64,000 bases of DNA, taken from contig OX424564.1 in NCBI GenBank assembly GCA_949152475.1, positions 29,262,165 through 29,326,164 on the forward strand, written 5' to 3'. A program made the position numbers and the translations under genes. How positions within the stretch are numbered: position 1 is the first letter of the stretch; each line of letters begins with the position of its first letter. Of this stretch, positions 24,858 through 36,580 are shown one piece after another. Under the pieces are notes generated by a model. The model saw only the letters and a list, made by a program, of their open reading frames with translations, was not told the DNA's origin and did no database searches. The stretch comes from Terebella lapidaria (Eukaryota > Annelida > Polychaeta > Terebellida > Terebellidae).

Positions 24858-24936
24858 CATAGACCGATCCGCCAGGAAAAGGGTCAGGTCACCGCGCATG
24901 CGCGCGCATTGCATTCTGGGGCATATTGTGTTCACA
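24858..24936 (+). repeat. Left subterminal inverted repeat of the two-gene transposon
   Basis: Contains ATAGACCGATCCG, GGTCACCGCG and GCGCGCATTGCATTCTGGG followed by GTGTTCAC. The same words occur in the same order on the - strand at 31268-31199. It lies directly upstream of the exonuclease start codon, so it may serve as promoter, transposase-binding site or both. Confidence 0.65.
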
Positions 24937-24953
24937 TCTGACAGCTGTCAAAC

Positions 24954-27900
24954 ATGGACCGGCTGTCAAACTCGATGTCGGACGAAAATCTTGTGGATTT
25001 GATAGAGTTATGCGATTTGCCTACCTTAAAAACATTGTTGAAGAAAGGGGATATTCCACATGCCAATACGCGGAAGTCGGCTCTTCAGCTGAGGCTCTTT
25101 TACGCCATCAGACTTGGTGAGTTCCAACTAGTAATACTGACTCACTTACTGTATGACTGTGTAGGCCTAGTATGTACACTAGTCCCATGCACTCACACCG
25201 CTGTAACAGGTAAACAGGTACAGTCTTTATCATGTTTATGCACCTATGCTGGTTTTTAAGTCATCATCATCAGTATAGTGTAGCCTGCATGATAACCTGA
25301 CGTTGACAGTTAATGCTATAATCAAGAGTGTGTCAAAAATTAGAAGTGTGCAAAATCATGCAAATGTGTATTAATAAAATGTTATGATGTTTCACTCAGG
25401 ATTACCAGTTGTGAAGACAGAGGATGAGAAGGAGGCAGAAAGGTGCAGGACGAGGGCCGCCAAGTTGGTGCTGGGGCCTGGTATGACCATGCCACATCCA
25501 CTAGCTTTGGACGAAGGATGGGAAACACTGCAGCCTAACTGCAACTTTCCCGAAGTGTTGGATAGTTCGATAACTGCATACTTTGTTGCCTGTGAGTTTA
25601 CAAGGGGACTTCAAACAAAGTTGTTAGAATATATAGCTAAGTTTTAATACTCAAGAATCACAATATCAATTCATTCGATGTTGTTTCATTGATATTCTAT
25701 TTATCTATTTAAGGATTTGGTTCTTCGTTTGCACCAGTTTGATGAAAAAAAAGGAATACAAAGGTCTGGCTAGCGTGAGTAGTCATAACATCACTTCATG
25801 TCTCATTTCCTATCATGATATACACTGTGTGGGAGATCGCCCATGATTCTTGACGAGTCAGCTTGGTAAAAATCTTTCCTCGCAGGGGCTTTGCTCGGCA
25901 ATAATCTTTCGTCGCATGGGCTTTCAGATGCCCCTGTGATTAAAGATTTTTGCCGAGCAATGCCCCTGCGAGGAAAGATTTTTACTGAGCTGACTTGTCA
26001 AGAATCATGGGCAAGCTCCCACCCAGTGATATAGGAGCTGGCTAATGTATTTGTGTGAGTTATTGTGCAGTCTAGGGTATTATAATGTGAATCACCAAGT
26101 AATAGTATAGATGAAACTGCTCAGACTCCAATGCAATGTAAATGAATATTACAATTAGTGAGCCAAATAATGATGCTCTCAATCATAATTGAATTAACAT
26201 ATTGACTACAATCTGATTTATATCAAAATTTGTACTATCAGGTAATATCGACCAAGGCATGAGCACTGGAGGGAGTAAGGCCCTTAAAGAAGGACGAAGT
26301 ATGGCAGTGGCAGAAGGCAGGGTGAAGAACGTGCAGTTCCACCCTATAAATCCACATATCGGTGAGTCCATTGTCAGTAGCAAATGCATGGTAAATACAA
26401 ATTGCATTGCCGACATCAAATTGTTGTGGATAATATGGGCATAGAAACAATACACATTCGCGATTGCGAGAACAGCTGTGTAATTGTAATCATATGAATT
26501 CAAATGATTAACTTCCTAACAGGGCTCGGCTTCATTTCGGGACTTGTATGTCCCCAAACTCGAGTGAACGAGAAGCCGTACTTCGTTTGGGTATCTGTGC
26601 ACAAGAATACTGGAGTTGTTCACAAGGCTGACTGCCACTGTATTGCTGGGTAAGTAGTAAGTTAGCTTAATAAGCTGATAACGGGATTTGTAACCAAGGA
26701 GAGGAAATGACTAATCTGCTAAATTTCATTCTACCAAATTAAATCTCTGCAAAATGAGGTGGGGCTCAAAACCGCCAAATTTAATAGCCGCCAAAATTAG
26801 TCGTTTTACAGTATACGTCACAGTAGCCCATACTTTATTATATCTGCACTATAAGCTATAATAACCAATATGTATAGTTTGTAAATATCACAGCTCATTG
26901 AGTTCTTCACTATAGCCTTGGAATGTGTATATTGGTGGATCAAACGACTAGTGTAAATTTTTATTTATTGCAGGCTTAGTGGAATATGCAAGCATGTTGC
27001 TGCACTTCTGTATAAAGTCTCGGATGCAGTGAAGGAAGGACACACAAAGCCAGGCACTAGCACCTTGCAGACATGGCATCAACCAGTCCACAAGAAGCTC
27101 AAGACCTCCAGTTTCATGAGCGACATCAAGACACCCAAGGCATCATCCAGCATGAAACCGTTGCAGCGAAAACGCCGTGATGAATCAGATCCACGGGCTG
27201 AGGACAAGAGGGTTCAGCGGGATCTGGCATCTTACAACCTCGATCGCCTTGCGGACATATCCAATGGTCAGTCAGCAGTATTGCTGTATTCAGCTGGATT
27301 CCGTCAAGAGGCTCCACTGAAGCAAAAACCAGATATCAGCCATCTAGGATTCGCAGTGGATGTGACAACCAATCAAGAACTCATGGTGCCCACTGTCGAA
27401 TCTGCTGCTGAACACAGTGAGGACTTCGAGAGCTTCCTGTCTGCTCTAACCATGTCGGAGACAAGTCAGGTGTGGCTGGCCAAATACACAGCACTACAGC
27501 ATCAGAGTGACACATGGCACAACCATCGTCGAGGACGCCTAACAGCTTCGAACATGGGCAAGGTTCTGCGGCATGTGGATTCCTCTCAAAACATCACTGG
27601 CGCAACACACAGCCTTGTGGCCACCATAATGTCCTACTACCCAAGCATGGATGGTGATCGTCAACCACAACCAATTCGGTGGGGGCGAGAACATGAGGCC
27701 AAGGCTCTTGAACGATACAAACTTGAGAGAATCCATCATCACAAGAAGTTCTCGCTGCAAGCCACAGGGCTTTGGGTGTCGTGTGCAACTCCATACATCG
27801 CTGCCAGTCCAGACAGTCTTGTGGAGTGTAGCTGCTGTGGTACAGGTGTGGTGGAAGTGAAGAATCCCTGGACGAACCGGCATTACACTGTCACAGAGTT

Positions 27901-28189
27901 CGCTAAATGTAGCACATCCTGCATCAAAGAATTAGACGGAAAACTGGTCTTGGATGAAGGTCATGACTACTATACCCAAATACAGGCACAGATGTATTGT
28001 ACAGGAGCCGCCTATGGTGACTTTGTTCTGATGTTGGACGCCAGCAAAGACAATTTCTTCACCTGTCGTGTCCCATCCAACACAGATTTCATGAACATCA
28101 TGTGTGAGAAAGCCCACACCTTCATGTCACAAGTTATATATCATGAACTCAAAAACCGTAATGTCAAGCAAAAAATGACATGTAAATGA
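24954..28189 (+). CDS. SWIM zinc-finger and YqaJ-type exonuclease, five exons
   Basis: Spliced from 24954-25116, 25400-25591, 26242-26361, 26523-26649 and 26974-28189. All junctions are GT-AG, phases agree, and the 1818-nt frame gives 605 residues without a stop. Residues 1-54 are a helical leader resembling a SAP-type module (ENLVDLIELCDLPTLKTLLK). The SWIM zinc finger is C196-x-C198-x7-C206-x-H208. The YqaJ (lambda-exonuclease-like, PD-(D/E)xK) domain spans about 380-560: RGRLTAS at 387-393, GREHE with E440, SPDS with D481, VEVK with E495 and K497, and QIQAQ at 536-540. All expected catalytic positions are present. The family degrades or resects DNA; its task in transposition is unproven. 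The start chosen is the only upstream ATG in frame with exon 2. An AATAAA lies 332 nt after the stop. Confidence 0.85.
25823..26028. mobile_element. Foldback MITE inside intron 2 of the exonuclease gene
   Basis: A 206-bp element whose two halves are near-perfect inverted copies around a short loop near 25925. Ends are CACTG and CAGTG, with matching arms such as GCCCATGATTCTTGAC and GTCAAGAATCATGGGC. It is flanked by ATATA at 25818-25822 and 26029-26033, a likely 5-bp target duplication, although part may be simple AT sequence. It sits within an intron of another transposon, so it inserted later or travels with that family. Confidence 0.75.
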
Positions 28190-28520
28190 AGATTGATTGT
28201 TTGGAAAGCACAAAATCACTTACTGTAAATCATATGTTTCATGTGTATGTGTGGACGAAAATACAGTGAATTTGATTCATGTCAATATAGGTTATATAAC
28301 ATGATTTTGTAGATCTTTTTGTAGACATGGAGGTTCATGTCATGTGTAATTGGAATTTCGCTGTACCGGTAATTATCACCGCACTTGTCTGTTAACATTA
28401 TTGTCTCTAAGGACTGCCTAATAGTCGTAGATTTAAGAATGATCAATGCTATACATGTACCACTATGCTATATTTCAATGCTATACCACAGAATCTTAAG
28501 GGTCATCTATTGTCATACAC

Positions 28521-28526
28521 AATAAA
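28521..28526 (+). terminator. Polyadenylation signal of the exonuclease gene
   Basis: An AATAAA on the + strand, 332 nt downstream of the stop codon at 28189. Confidence 0.5.
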
Positions 28527-28695
28527 TTTGAAATGACTACAAACAGTACGTGATATTTCATATTGTGCTAAAGGCTTGTTAAACCTCATGGCAAAGAAGG
28601 TTATTCTGCTAAAACCTTGTGGCAAATATTGAAAAGAATCAGAGCTTTGTGATGTTCAGGAATATGCCAAGGTCACCAACAATGACACATACTAT

Positions 28696-28701
28696 TTTAT
28701 T
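28696..28701 (-). terminator. Polyadenylation signal of the transposase gene
   Basis: An AATAAA on the - strand, 45 nt downstream of the transposase stop codon at 28748-28746. Confidence 0.55.
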
Positions 28702-28745
28702 TGTTCACATTCATTCTAATTTTTTACAGCACATGGTCACAATAT

Positions 28746-31104
28746 TCATTCTGGATTCACAACCGATCGCTTGAGGTTTGTTAGTGCAACACATGTCTTA
28801 ACTGCTGGTGTGATCAAGTCCAACTGGCTGATTGGGGTGACACCATTCAAATACGAGTAGTCTCTCAATCGTCCAATCACTCTCTCCACATGTATACGCG
28901 AATGTGCAATGTTTTTGTTTGAACTGTTTTCGGCATCGGTGAAAGGCTTCCCGCCTTTTACAAAAGGGGGAATGATCAGTTCGACACCATGCTCCAGCAA
29001 CTCTCCTTGAACTCGGAAGCCTTTATCGGCCATGCATTTGTCCCCGACAGAAAATTTTTGCAATATTCCAGACTGCAAGAAGATTTCTTTGTCAGACATA
29101 TTGCCTCCAGCAGCACATGATATGTATGATATTGAACCACCTGGGGTACAAGCCAGAAGGAACTTAGATGTAGGTCGGTTCTTGTATGTCGAGAAGACTT
29201 GGCTATTTGCTTCAACATGTGAAGGTCGTTCAGCTGGGATCTCGAAACAGTCAACAACTGCTGTGATGCCATCCCATTTTTTGAAACAAGACGGATAGCA
29301 CAACTTGATTTCTTCCCTCGAAGGCCAGTAAATCAGACCTGACAGTTCCAAACTGAGCATAGGTATCCAAGTGGATAGCAATATAGACACCGTGCTCGTT
29401 GACACACTGAACAGAAAGGCCAGATATTCGCCAGACAAATTCAGTTTCAACTTCATGAGACACATCAGTAGTTCATTCTCTATACTGAGTGCACGTAACC
29501 CACATTTCTTTCTCTCAGGAGCACCTTCTTTGTCTCCTTTACCATCCCAGTAGTTCATTGTTTCTGCGGCAGGGCGCACTTCATCAAGCACCCACTGGAA
29601 CATGGCGTAGCTTGGTAATCCTGTATGCAAGGTGACAAGTGTATCACTGTGTTTGATTCGGTTGATGTCCAACGAAGGTTTCTGTACTTCATGATCGTCC
29701 ACTTGCTTCTGTAATACGCGAATTCTCTGCTGGTTTTCATTCCGCTGCCGAGTACGTAGATCTGCCTTCTTTTTGAGTGTCTGCACCTCACGTTCCAGCG
29801 CTGTTACCTTGGCCTCCAGCTCTCTGATCCTTTTCTGGCACCTCTTTTTCATGCATTTTTTCTTGGTAGGTTTGCAGGCAGATGTACTGGTGTCCATTGG
29901 TGTTCTGGAAGATGCGGCGGAGACTTCTGGCATGTTGTTTTGATCATCAGAAGGCATTGGGGCCACATAGTTGTGAAAATCACCAACCAGTTGACACATT
30001 TCAGTTCCTGCTTCCAACTCAGTCACCAGGTTCACAGATTCTCCAGAAGTTTTAGTAACTCCATGTGGTTTTCGTCCTTCGATTGGAATGCCATGTGTGA
30101 AAAATGCCAGAACTTCCAAACATTTTCCAATGGGAATGATATTCAGCACGAGATCGATCAGACTCCTCGCCACAGTTTTTTCCAGCCTCATACATACTGA
30201 TGAGAATCCAGAAGAACAGTCGAGATGCCCCACGTACTTTTCGAAAAGATGTTTCAAGTCCTGCTGTTGGGCGTGTTCACACAGTTCAGACAAGACTTCA
30301 CACACGATTTCCTCATCAATCTTCTGAAGGTCATCTCTCACCTCAGATACGGTGCGTGCCCATGATGGGTAGGAACGAAGGTGCATAGTTGGAGCGCGGT
30401 TGTTGTGTAGAGGCTTGCCATACCTGGAACATAATTTCAAAAAATGCATTCACACATACCAAACAATAAAGTGAACATTTAACAAACACATCACTATTCT
30501 AACATGACATTCACCAGTTTATTGACATATCAGCTGAATGTTAATGAAATCATGTAGGCTCATCTTACCGGAAATGATTGCTGCAAACACGAGTATTTCC
30601 CGACACAGTGTATCCAGGTCGCTGTAGCTTGGTCTCCCACTTCTGGTGATCTTGTGGGTTCGGTTTGTGGAATTTCAGCTCGGACACATGTGGCAGTACA
30701 ATCCACCTGTGAGATTAAACACACACACATCAAAAAACAACATTGAAAACTAATATATCGGTACATTTATACGATATAGTTGCATTTGTAGTGCATAACT
30801 ACTTCCATATATATAGGGCTATATAGTGCTAGCGCATAATTTCATTTATGCATATGTCTATATTGAACTGTTACTGCATGGGTTATATATCTATATCACA
30901 AACATAACACTAGACCTTCGACATTGTGGAAAGGGCTGTGTCTGACCATTCAACAAGTTCAATCTGACATTGACCAGTGTTGGCCTGGGGGAAGCTGGGG
31001 GGAGGGGGTGTGGCAAGCTACGATTCATTTATTCATAGTCACACTCACTTGTTTTTATATCTTCGGTCATTGGAACAAGAAGCAACACCGCATCTGCTTG
31101 ACAT
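28746..31104 (-). CDS. THAP-domain DDE transposase (DDE_Tnp_4 type), three exons
   Basis: Spliced on the - strand from 31104-31049, 30706-30569 and 30423-28746. Donors and acceptors are GT-AG, phases agree, and the 1872-nt frame gives 623 residues without a stop. A THAP zinc finger opens the protein: C5-x4-C10-x49-C60-x2-H63, with W42 and the RAPTMHL box near 74-80 that corresponds to the family's AVPTIF box. A lysine-rich coiled coil follows at about 261-311 and a helix-turn-helix at about 392-416 (LSGEYLAFLFSVSTSTVS). The catalytic domain has D456 (AVVDCFEI), D531 (MADKGF) and E578 (HVERVIGRLR), the expected DDE triad. THAP would bind the element ends and the DDE core would cut and join DNA. 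Exon 1 was chosen because only it supplies the first cysteine pair in the right phase. Confidence 0.9.
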
Positions 31105-31198
31105 GTTTGAACAAGTTTAACACAATAAATTATCTGCGGTAATACTACTTCAGTGGGTTTTATAATCGACTTCGCGAAAACCATAATATTGCCTCGGA

Positions 31199-31268
31199 AG
31201 TGAACACATATCCTCCCACAATGCATTGCGCGCCGGCTGCACGCAGTGACCTCGAATCGGTCTATACA
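31199..31268 (-). repeat. Right subterminal inverted repeat of the two-gene transposon
   Basis: On the - strand this reads ATAGACCGATTCG, GGTCACTGCG and GCGCGCAATGCATTGTGGG followed by GTGTTCAC, matching 24858-24936 in order and spacing with a short gap. It lies about 95 bp upstream of the transposase start codon. Confidence 0.65.
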
Positions 31269-33942: not shown

Positions 33943-34888
33943 TTGACATAAATGTCAATAAATTCAAATGCAAATCCATTGATTTCTCACACCCCCGCAC
34001 ATGTTCTTCCAAAGTCCTAGCTATTGCAAGGTTTCCAACAAATGAAAACCGTCTTCTAATCATTTGAAAGACGCATTTGAAAGTAGCCCACGTGAAAATA
34101 ATGTAACTCAAGAAATATAATAGGCTTCATATATTGCCGATTTTAATATTACCATTTACATACTGAGCAAAATGTAGTAGACCTATAGGCCTACCCATTC
34201 ATACTTAAGCCAAACAGAGTAATAATCGCCTTAATACTTTAGAAGTTGAACTCATAATTGCGAGTGGATTTAATAAAAATACAAGCACATGTTTTATGTG
34301 TTCATGCACTTCACTTTGCTACAATGAATACATTGCGGTTTCACTTTGGCAGCTCGACAGAAGGGAACCATTAAAACACATATTGACATTAAGTATTTCT
34401 AGTGACGTATTTTGGAGGAGTGGTCTGAAAAAGGAAGAACATAAATTTAATTTCCAACTACTGGCTACTGTAAACAGTGTGATATTACTGTGATATTTTT
34501 AACTGATATATCCTGTTGTTTTGATGCCTATAGGCTAGCCGACGAAAACTGATCACTAGCCTTCTGCATACTTCGATGTGATGCAGAGATAAGGAAAATT
34601 GCTGAACATTATAAAACTACATGTACGAACTAGGCCTCTGTTCATGTGCTAGTACACACCACTGCATGTGTCTTACATGTCAACAGGTCGAGTGGATAAC
34701 TTGTATCACGGAGTTTTCTTGTGGGTGAGATGTTACAACATTGTTGATGTTTGGCAAGTGGCTTATCACGTGACTGTCTCCATGTGCCCCGTAATAAAAA
34801 GTTCGTCTGCTAGCCGAACTTATCGTGAGCTAACGTTACATGTTTCCTTGCATGGCCAATGTTGACAGGATTATATCATTATTACATT
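33943..34888. other. Upstream region and 5' UTR of the PPP1R3-like gene
   Basis: AT-rich, with no gene of its own. The promoter and 5' UTR of the downstream gene should lie here, but no convincing TATA box or initiator was identified. An upstream in-frame ATG at 34859 is discussed with that gene. Confidence 0.45.
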
Positions 34889-36580
34889 ATGGTGGATAAC
34901 AGATTCAATGCAACGAACGTCTTCCCTTGGAAATGTACAGTGGATTTCAGTGGAAAATTATTGAAGAATTTCAGCTATAATGGTAATTACCACGAACAGT
35001 ATTACTTCCCGCGCCTAATCCACACGAAAATAACGGAAAAACGCAGACGTGAATCTTTGGATAGCTCGTGTGAAGGCGATACACCGCTAGATCAGGCTAA
35101 CAGCACGTGCCAGCAAAGTACTGATTGGTTCCTGGGGCCAAACTCTCCCACGTGCTCAGTTGGCAACAACGAACCCCGAGCAATAATACCCAATTGGACA
35201 GGAACCAAGTCATACTACCATCCGGAAGCATCCTCAAATCTCCGCAGTCTTTGGCTGCGTGAGGCAATGGCAGAAGAAACAAGCCCTATTGCAGCAGACG
35301 ATATGTCCGGTGGTCAATTCCCGGCAAAAGATACGGATATGGGTGGCGGGAAATTACCGGATGGCAGCGAGTCGTCTGGCTTGCGCTCATGTGATAGTGT
35401 CACCTCCGAGGATTCAGTGTTCTTCGATGACTGCTCGCTGACCAGTGAGGATATTGATCGCGGGTGCAAGCAGAGGCGGAGGGAGGACGGGAGCGATGCA
35501 GACTCCTCGTTTTCCTCTACGTGCAGCAGTTCTAGTACGCTAGAGGGCACCGAAGGCGTCGTGCAAGATGGCGGCGCCGGCACCGACGTGAAGGACGCTG
35601 ACGTCAAGGTCACAGCACAGGAAGAGGAACAGCGTGAACAACAACAACAAACCACGGCCGGCAAAGCCAGGCACCACCACCACCACAAAGACAAGCACAA
35701 GTTGGACATACATCTCGTCATACCAAAGCCCCAGATTGAAGTGGGTGGTGGTGACGGGTTGTCCAGTGATAGCGGCAATGGAAGTCCTAAGGTAAGCGTC
35801 GGTGAATCAGGAGACATGGGTGACACCGATCCCGGGGACACGGGGCAAGGTGGGGAACGAGCCTCGGCAGCAGCACCCACGATCATGTCTTCGTCGTTTG
35901 AGGACAGAGAATTTGACTTTCTCAAGGCTGAGCCAGTGAGAAGGTCCACCTCACTGAAAACGTACAAGACGCCCCCGGGGACCCCCCACCGCAAGAAAGG
36001 CGTGAGGTTTGCAGACGCCTTGGGCCTGGACTTGGAGTCAGTGAGACACATCCTGAACCTTGAGGAGCCTCCGGTGGTCCCCAAGTCTGCCATGGAACAC
36101 CTCCGCGTGGGCATCGAGAAGGAACAACTAACAAGCGGGGTTAAATACCTGAGTGCCCTGTTCTCCCAACCTGGGGCCGACCCTGCCTTCACGAAGCGAG
36201 TCATGGCGGGGAAAGTGGTGCTAGAAAATTGTGTCGTTGACGACAAGGACATGACGATATCTGGTCTCATACGTGTCGCCAACTTGGCCTTCCACAAGGC
36301 GGTTATCATGCGGTACACGACAAACGCTTGGCTCTCAAGCGAAGACGTCGAAGCCAACTACGTTCACAACTCCAATGACGGCCCCACAGACCGATTCTCA
36401 TTCACGTTGACGGTGCCAAAGTATTTTGCCGTGGGACAGCGCCTTGAGTTTGCCATTATGTACAACACTGGTGGCCAGACGTTCTGGGATAACAACTGTG
36501 GCAAGAATTACGTCATCGAGTGCTATGCACGCGCAGTGCCCACGTGCGAATCGGACAACACGTGGATGCACTTCCTGTGA
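34889..36580 (+). CDS. Glycogen-targeting regulatory subunit of protein phosphatase 1 (PPP1R3 family)
   Basis: A single-exon frame of 563 residues. Family members tether PP1 to glycogen, where it dephosphorylates glycogen synthase and phosphorylase and so favours glycogen storage. Numbered from this start, the first 340 residues are a low-complexity Ser/Asp/Gly-rich region with glutamine and histidine runs. A PP1-docking RVxF-type motif lies at about 369-374 (KKGVRF), followed by ADALGLDLESVR as in relatives. The CBM21 glycogen-binding domain spans about 435-545, with the hallmark WDNNCGKNY at 533-541. The ATG at 34889 (A at -3, G at +4) is preferred over the in-frame ATG at 34859, which has a weak context. 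The linker is longer than in vertebrate PPP1R3B/C, and which paralogue it matches is undecided. Confidence 0.9.
   Translation: MVDNRFNATNVFPWKCTVDFSGKLLKNFSYNGNYHEQYYFPRLIHTKITEKRRRESLDSSCEGDTPLDQANSTCQQSTDWFLGPNSPTCSVGNNEPRAIIPNWTGTKSYYHPEASSNLRSLWLREAMAEETSPIAADDMSGGQFPAKDTDMGGGKLPDGSESSGLRSCDSVTSEDSVFFDDCSLTSEDIDRGCKQRRREDGSDADSSFSSTCSSSSTLEGTEGVVQDGGAGTDVKDADVKVTAQEEEQREQQQQTTAGKARHHHHHKDKHKLDIHLVIPKPQIEVGGGDGLSSDSGNGSPKVSVGESGDMGDTDPGDTGQGGERASAAAPTIMSSSFEDREFDFLKAEPVRRSTSLKTYKTPPGTPHRKKGVRFADALGLDLESVRHILNLEEPPVVPKSAMEHLRVGIEKEQLTSGVKYLSALFSQPGADPAFTKRVMAGKVVLENCVVDDKDMTISGLIRVANLAFHKAVIMRYTTNAWLSSEDVEANYVHNSNDGPTDRFSFTLTVPKYFAVGQRLEFAIMYNTGGQTFWDNNCGKNYVIECYARAVPTCESDNTWMHFL

What the first reader, a model, noticed from the sequence alone, without database searches (positions are those of the whole stretch)
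24858..31268. Intact two-gene transposon pairing a THAP-DDE transposase with a SWIM-YqaJ exonuclease
Both genes reconstruct to full length across introns with matching phases (605 and 623 aa), and no stop or frameshift was found. The DDE triad (D456, D531, E578), the THAP Cys/His ligands, the SWIM ligands and the YqaJ acidic/Lys residues are all present. A lambda-exonuclease-like nuclease built into a cut-and-paste element is unusual. It could process excised ends, resect donor breaks to favour repair that restores the element, or act on replicating intermediates; none of these roles is established. In this window nearly every other element is non-autonomous or dead.
Basis: partly seen in the sequence, partly recalled or inferred. 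Interest (0 to 1): 0.8.

Follow-up and report, generated by a model that had tools for sequence, protein, structure and literature searches.

The report
Recently active two-gene ISL2EU DNA transposon
This is a complete jumping gene that carries its own cutting enzyme plus a phage-like DNA-chewing nuclease; the kind (ISL2EU) is already described, but this family looks freshly active and could let someone test what the nuclease is for.

Summary
This gene pair is the published hallmark of the ISL2EU group (Han et al. 2015, PMC4482050), so the architecture is not new. New here: seven full-length copies on five contigs differ by two silent substitutions in total. One copy lies in a palindrome that is restored only if the empty site held one AT, giving a 2-bp TSD. 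Unlike the described ISL2EU pattern (A|AT|T, GG termini), this family has AGACCGAT termini and 0 of 9 insertions in A|AT|T. Genome-wide, 104 of 150 listed YqaJ hits have a listed transposase hit within 12 kb, all 104 on opposite strands. In the 31 pairs examined (27 non-redundant) the lambda-exonuclease-type active-site residues are invariant, and the two genes' divergences are correlated. Nuclease catalysis is therefore probably kept by selection. Its most likely job, resecting the donor break so that homologous repair restores the element, is inferred, not shown.

The parts
24861..31263 (.). ISL2EU-type transposon, 6403 bp
   Evidence: Nine complete copies share the same ends; seven are exactly 6403 bp
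24859..24860 (.). AT target-site duplication, left
   Evidence: AT at both ends of 9 of 9 complete copies; single AT in the reconstructed empty site of L015
31264..31265 (.). AT target-site duplication, right
24861..24871 (+). Left terminal inverted repeat AGACCGATCCG (10 of 11 match the right end)
31253..31263 (-). Right terminal inverted repeat (reads AGACCGATTCG on the - strand)
24902..24941 (+). Subterminal inverted repeat, left arm (75% to right arm)
31194..31233 (-). Subterminal inverted repeat, right arm
24954..25116 (+). YqaJ nuclease gene, exon 1 (start codon; SAP-like N terminus by resemblance only)
   Evidence: SAP is listed for relative P0009, not found in the window protein
25400..25591 (+). 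YqaJ gene exon 2
26242..26361 (+). YqaJ gene exon 3
26523..26649 (+). YqaJ gene exon 4 (start of the SWIM pattern, CxC)
26974..28189 (+). YqaJ gene exon 5: end of the SWIM pattern and the YqaJ/lambda-exonuclease domain (E442, D481, E495, K497, Q536)
31049..31104 (-). Transposase gene exon 1 (THAP start)
30569..30706 (-). Transposase gene exon 2 (THAP)
28746..30423 (-). Transposase gene exon 3 (HTH_Tnp_4, DDE_Tnp_4; D456, D531, E578)
25823..26028 (.). Palindromic repeat (99-bp arms, 88%) in YqaJ intron 2, also in the nine other copies aligned

Best explanation
The feature is an autonomous-looking, recently mobile ISL2EU (PHIS superfamily) cut-and-paste transposon. SHOWN by sequence: two intact convergent genes in one element, common ends in the nine complete copies, 2-bp AT duplication, near-identical copies, conservation of both active sites among the pairs examined. 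INFERRED: the THAP and HTH domains of the transposase bind the terminal and subterminal repeats; the DDE domain cuts the element out and inserts it at an AT. The YqaJ protein, targeted by its SWIM (and SAP-like) DNA-binding parts, acts as a 5'-to-3' exonuclease that resects the broken donor site, steering repair towards homology-directed copying from the sister or homologue, so the element is restored at the donor and gains a copy. I put the identity at about 0.95, selection for nuclease catalysis at about 0.9, and the donor-resection role at about 0.4. The single confidence value below is for the identity together with 'the nuclease must be catalytically active', not for the donor-resection step.
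For: Gene content equals the published ISL2EU description. Pfam: THAP, HTH_Tnp_4, DDE_Tnp_4 and YqaJ above cut-off. Seven copies of exactly 6403 bp: five identical, the window and L009 with one private substitution each; by my reading of the codons both are silent. Empty-site palindrome in L015: 26-bp perfect stem with one AT, 5 with none, 7 with two. 104 of 150 listed YqaJ hits have a listed DDE_Tnp_4 hit within 12 kb, all 104 on the opposite strand, 89 convergent and 15 divergent. In 31 of 31 YqaJ domains (31 pairs picked from the 104; 27 non-redundant) the residues matching lambda exonuclease E85, D119, E129, K131, Q157 are kept, and in 31 of 31 partner domains the transposase D, D, E, while median pairwise YqaJ identity over the 27 is 0.32. 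The nuclease model matches LHK-Exo (TM by target 0.77 and 0.76) and lambda exonuclease (0.59-0.69 over the seven chains listed). Divergences of the two domains correlate, Mantel r 0.524, 0 of 20000 permutations as high. Between YqaJ relatives f10 and L018 non-synonymous divergence is 0.33 while synonymous divergence is saturated.
Against: No direct evidence for the donor-resection role; no RNA or insertion-polymorphism data. The family's target flank is not the described A|AT|T (0 of 9) and its termini start AG, not GG. Within-family silent/replacement counts are too small or too mixed to show selection: L017 nuclease 6/5, transposase 2/5; L080 4/4 and 4/9; L011 3/1 and 1/2; L016 1/0 and 0/0; older L079, with one stop, dN/dS 0.55 and 0.44. 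Only 7 of 27 families share the nearest neighbour in both trees, 6 of 24 splits are shared, and one strongly supported conflict, involving the window family, was seen. The 31 domains were found by the Pfam model, which favours sequences that keep the motif; one of them (f18) has an in-frame stop.
Confidence: 0.88

Rival explanations
1. The YqaJ protein is mainly a DNA-binding and assembly partner of the transposase, as the Myb-like protein is in Harbinger elements; its nuclease fold is incidental.
For: Harbinger elements carry a Myb-like second protein that helps nuclear import and TIR binding (PMC9179366 passages). The nuclease protein has a SWIM pattern and one relative a SAP domain.
Against: Five active-site positions are invariant in 31 of 31 domains examined, which a mere binding role would not require.
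Confidence: 0.2
2. The nuclease processes transposition intermediates (excised ends, staggered 5' flaps, target gaps or extrachromosomal by-products) rather than the donor chromosome.
For: A similar role (degrading DNA intermediates during transposition) is suggested, untested, for the DnaQ-type nuclease of KolobokD (PMC9587614 passages). A 5' exonuclease would act on 5' ends left at cuts.
Against: Insertions here are clean with a 2-bp AT duplication, as is usual for transposons without such a nuclease (recalled); nothing in the sequence points to an unusual intermediate.
Confidence: 0.25
3. Two unrelated genes or two separate adjacent elements that happen to lie side by side.
For: They are transcribed towards each other and have different fold families.
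Against: Nine complete copies with identical outer ends in different flanks; 104 of 104 paired hits in opposite orientation.
Confidence: 0.01
4. A domesticated host locus or a dead relic rather than a mobile element.
For: No expression data were available.
Against: Open frames in both genes; five copies identical over 6403 bp at distinct sites.
Confidence: 0.03

Closest known systems
ISL2EU group of the PHIS superfamily (Han et al. 2015, PMC4482050)
   Same: DDE transposase with HTH and THAP, second ORF with a YqaJ exonuclease domain, AT target-site duplication, intact two-ORF copies
   Different: TIR starts AGACCGAT rather than the usual GG; target flanks pyrimidine-AT-purine in 6 of 9 and A|AT|T in 0 of 9; 6403 bp against a reported mean of about 4840 bp
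Patiria miniata THAP-type protein LOC119730420 and YqaJ protein LOC119730016
   Same: Best named relatives of both window proteins (46% and 40% identity over 99% of the query); both listed on a contig of 19308314 bp, which suggests linkage
   Different: Adjacency in the starfish was not inspected; the starfish nuclease as annotated lacks the CxC part of the SWIM pattern
PIF/Harbinger
   Same: Related DDE transposase and two-gene layout (PMC4482050)
   Different: Second protein is Myb/SANT; TSD is TWA (PMC4482050)
Spy
   Same: Sister clade of ISL2EU transposases (PMC11304231, passages)
   Different: One gene, no TSD, AAATTT target
KolobokE
   Same: Another DDE transposon lineage with a PD-(D/E)XK lambda-exonuclease-like nuclease (PMC9587614, passages)
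   Different: Different superfamily; nuclease lies downstream of the transposase domain, not in an opposing gene
Lambda exonuclease / LHK-Exo / baculovirus alkaline exonuclease
   Same: Fold and active-site residues of the nuclease domain
   Different: Those belong to phage or virus recombination systems (recalled); the Pfam scan shows no annealing protein among the two transposon genes

Membership tests
ISL2EU | DDE transposase carrying THAP and HTH domains | tested here: met
   THAP 28.1 bits (cut-off 23.9), HTH_Tnp_4 49.7 (27), DDE_Tnp_4 130.6 (24.8)
ISL2EU | Second ORF with a YqaJ exonuclease domain | tested here: met
   YqaJ 59.7 bits (cut-off 22); fold match to LHK-Exo
ISL2EU | 2-bp AT target-site duplication (the authors group by TSD composition) | tested here: met
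   AT at both ends in 9 of 9 complete copies; one AT in the reconstructed empty site of L015
ISL2EU | Described target preference A|AT|T (a reported characteristic, not the grouping criterion) | tested here: not met
   0 of 9 complete copies. Another family of this genome (left ends of L018, L019, L021; right ends of L018, L020) does read A|AT|GG...CC|AT|T
ISL2EU | TIR usually beginning GG | tested here: not met
   Begins AG; the authors write 'usually'
ISL2EU | Transposase falls in the ISL2EU clade of reference families | not testable with these tools
   No Repbase reference sequences at hand
ISL2EU | Found in animals | tested here: inconclusive
PIF/Harbinger | TWA 3-bp TSD and Myb/SANT second ORF | tested here: not met
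   AT TSD; second ORF scores as YqaJ only
Spy | No TSD and a single ORF | tested here: not met
   2-bp TSD, two genes
Kolobok (KolobokE) | TTAA target-site duplication (recalled) | tested here: not met
   AT, not TTAA, at 9 of 9 complete copies; no Kolobok reference was compared

The most novel reading that the evidence does not exclude
ISL2EU elements carry their own resection enzyme: a lambda-exonuclease-type nuclease that turns the excision break into 3' single strands, so that host homologous repair copies the element back. Cut-and-paste would then become in effect copy-making by design, and the nuclease would have stayed paired with the transposase through the diversification of the group for that reason.
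Probability: 0.35. Interest if true: 0.75.

Novelty: new member of a known kind. Interest (0 to 1): 0.38.

Why it matters
Han et al. 2015 state that the function of the second ORF in PHIS transposons is unknown (passage), and the 2022 fish study, which reports transcription, knew of no earlier proof of activity for ISL2EU (passage). A family with seven full-length copies that differ by two silent changes is a good native source for a transposition assay with catalytic mutants, which would settle the nuclease's role. The invariance of the nuclease active site in the 31 domains examined argues that catalysis, not only DNA binding, matters.

Tried and rejected
Two adjacent elements: rejected by the shared outer ends of nine complete copies.

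No-TSD (Spy-like) ends: because AT is its own reverse complement, the terminal ATs could be part of the TIR; the L015 palindrome speaks against that. It is one copy.

Partner swap in the window family: FastTree put the window transposase with a clade (f10, f12, f16, f23, f27) and its nuclease elsewhere, the one strongly supported conflict. With starfish sequences added, the transposase grouping had support 91/89, but the nuclease data did not reject the matching clade (AU p 0.41). Not claimed.

Within-family dN/dS: too few changes to be informative. Domain-level dS between families was mostly saturated (the script stopped on a division by zero part-way through the transposase pairs; the rest was not run).

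MITEs of this family: end queries found 12 left and 12 right ends besides one short partial match each, so no swarm of short derivatives was seen; ones sharing only the outermost tens of bases could have been missed. One solo right end of 296 bp, 100% identical (L085), would fit aborted gap repair but equally a deletion. The joined-flank search for an L015 empty site listed 38 copies of the surrounding repeat without the palindrome (40 of 261 candidates scored), not an empty palindrome.

Papers: searches for the YqaJ-transposon pairing and for ISL2EU led to two papers in which I saw it described (PMC4482050, PMC9179366); other papers on those lists were seen as listings, except the passages cited. 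Searches gave nothing that I used; 74 led to PMC6199318. Passages of PMC12730594 and PMC3466216 were seen as background only.
Full report
WHAT IS THERE. The element occupies window 24861-31263 and is flanked by AT on both sides. The + strand gene has exons 24954-25116, 25400-25591, 26242-26361, 26523-26649 and 26974-28189 and encodes 605 aa. The - strand gene has exons 31104-31049, 30706-30569 and 30423-28746 and encodes 623 aa. All six introns are GT/AG and the frame is open throughout. Pfam finds THAP, HTH_Tnp_4 and DDE_Tnp_4 in the transposase and YqaJ in the nuclease, all over cut-off. The SWIM pattern (CxCx7CxH, residues 196-208) rests on the pattern alone.

ONE ELEMENT, RECENTLY MOBILE. 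Ten copies (window included; picked from the capped DDE_Tnp_4 list) align over most or all of the element. Nine have both ends, with AT outside each; the tenth, L011, runs into an insertion near its right end, and its right terminus lies outside the stretch fetched. Seven of the nine are exactly 6403 bp, on five contigs; five of these are identical to each other, and the window copy and L009 each carry one private substitution, at 27724 and 27457. By my reading of the codons both are silent (CTG/CTT and TCG/TCA). The other two complete copies are L016 (an insertion of about 0.5 kb) and L017 (98.8% identical). Older, incomplete relatives are L080 and L079. End searches found 12 substantial left ends and 12 right ends in the assembly, including a solo 296-bp right end, L085.

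TARGET SITE. AT is its own reverse complement, so flanking ATs alone cannot tell a duplication from part of the terminal repeat. Copy L015 landed inside a palindrome. If the empty site held one AT the palindrome has a perfect 26-bp stem; with none the stem is 5 bp, with two it is 7. The TSD is therefore most simply 2 bp, AT. Flanking bases in the nine complete copies: pyrimidine before AT in 8 of 9, purine after in 7 of 9, both in 6 of 9, A|AT|T in 0 of 9. A second family of the same genome reads as the published pattern, A|AT|GGCC at three left ends and CC|AT|T at two right ends; there the AAT and ATT are common to all copies seen, so the split is by analogy. The window family departs from the described target preference and from the usual GG terminus, but not from the AT duplication by which the group is defined.

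KNOWN KIND. Han et al. 2015 (PMC4482050; passages and the first of four parts of the text) describe ISL2EU as having AT TSDs, one ORF with DDE, HTH and THAP, and another with a YqaJ exonuclease domain. A 2022 fish study says much the same (PMC9179366, passages); it reports transcription but says no proof of activity had been reported before, to its authors' knowledge, and Han et al. state that the function of the additional ORFs is unknown. The pairing is therefore not new. Another transposon lineage, KolobokE, also has a lambda-exonuclease-like nuclease (PMC9587614, passages).

THE NUCLEASE IS KEPT ACTIVE. The model of nuclease exon 5 (mean pLDDT 76.7; 88 or more in all but one ten-residue block across the YqaJ match) matches LHK-Exo and lambda exonuclease, and baculovirus alkaline exonuclease best among viral models. 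A profile of 11 sequences aligns with 1avq and 6m9k so that window E442, D481, E495, K497 and Q536 fall on lambda exonuclease E85, D119, E129, K131 and Q157 (1avq chain positions are shifted by two). D119, E129 and K131 are named as active-site residues in PMC6199318 (passages); E85 and Q157 are recalled. These five positions are the same in 31 of 31 domains from this genome (31 pairs that I picked from the 104, window included; one domain has an in-frame stop), while the 27 non-redundant ones have a median pairwise identity of 0.32. The transposase D, D and E are likewise 31 of 31. The Pfam-based selection of hits biases towards intact motifs, but five of the eight fully invariant YqaJ columns being active-site ones is more than I would expect from the fold alone.

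THE PAIR IS OLD AND STABLE. Of 150 listed YqaJ hits, 104 have a listed DDE_Tnp_4 hit within 12 kb; all 104 are on opposite strands, 89 convergent and 15 divergent. With 150 DDE sites in 762 Mb less than one neighbour would be expected by chance (my arithmetic). Both lists were capped, so the 46 without a listed partner do not show absence. Pairwise divergences of the two domains correlate (Mantel r 0.524, 0 of 20000 permutations as high), and the four divergently oriented families examined form one clade in both trees; but only 6 of 24 splits and 7 of 27 nearest neighbours agree, and one strongly supported conflict involves the window family. Short saturated domains can give such disagreement, and the hint of a partner swap did not survive the AU test (p 0.41).

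HOW IT LIKELY WORKS. The transposase binds the ends through THAP and HTH, cuts and pastes into an AT (inferred from family knowledge and from the 2-bp duplication). The nuclease's catalytic conservation argues that it degrades DNA in the process. Of the possible substrates, the donor break is my leading choice, because 5'-to-3' resection is what this enzyme class does in phage recombination (recalled) and because it would let homologous repair restore the element. This step has no direct support here; rival roles are end processing and transposase assembly.

VERDICT. Observation confirmed; interpretation of rarity not supported; a new, probably active, member of a known kind with an unusual target flank.

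Noticed in passing
window 34829-36580 (+): Stop-to-stop frame of 583 aa with a CBM21 domain, resembling a glycogen-targeting subunit of protein phosphatase 1 (name recalled); the transposon lies about 3.6 kb upstream.
   Followed up: partly
window 25823-26028: A 99-bp-arm inverted repeat (88%) sits in intron 2 of the nuclease gene and is present in the nine other copies aligned.
   Followed up: no
L015, flanks of the element: The insertion lies in a short palindromic insert, itself flanked by a 10-bp direct repeat, inside a repeat with 38 listed copies without the palindrome (two read directly, L083 and L084).
   Followed up: partly
L085, 6126-6421: Solo right end of 296 bp, 100% identical to window 30970-31265, without a left end in the stretch read: a very recent truncated copy.
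   Followed up: partly
L039-L042, L067-L068, L073-L074: Four families with the two genes divergent instead of convergent form one clade in both the YqaJ and the transposase tree, so gene order was probably inverted once.
   Followed up: partly
P0007: A YqaJ relative carries a C-terminal PHD finger (PF00628), a possible chromatin-reading addition.
   Followed up: no
whole genome G000: The 31 YqaJ-transposase pairs examined hold 27 domain-level lineages (under 85% identity), against 25 ISL2EU families in 14 species listed in 2015; not all were checked for ISL2EU ends.
   Followed up: partly
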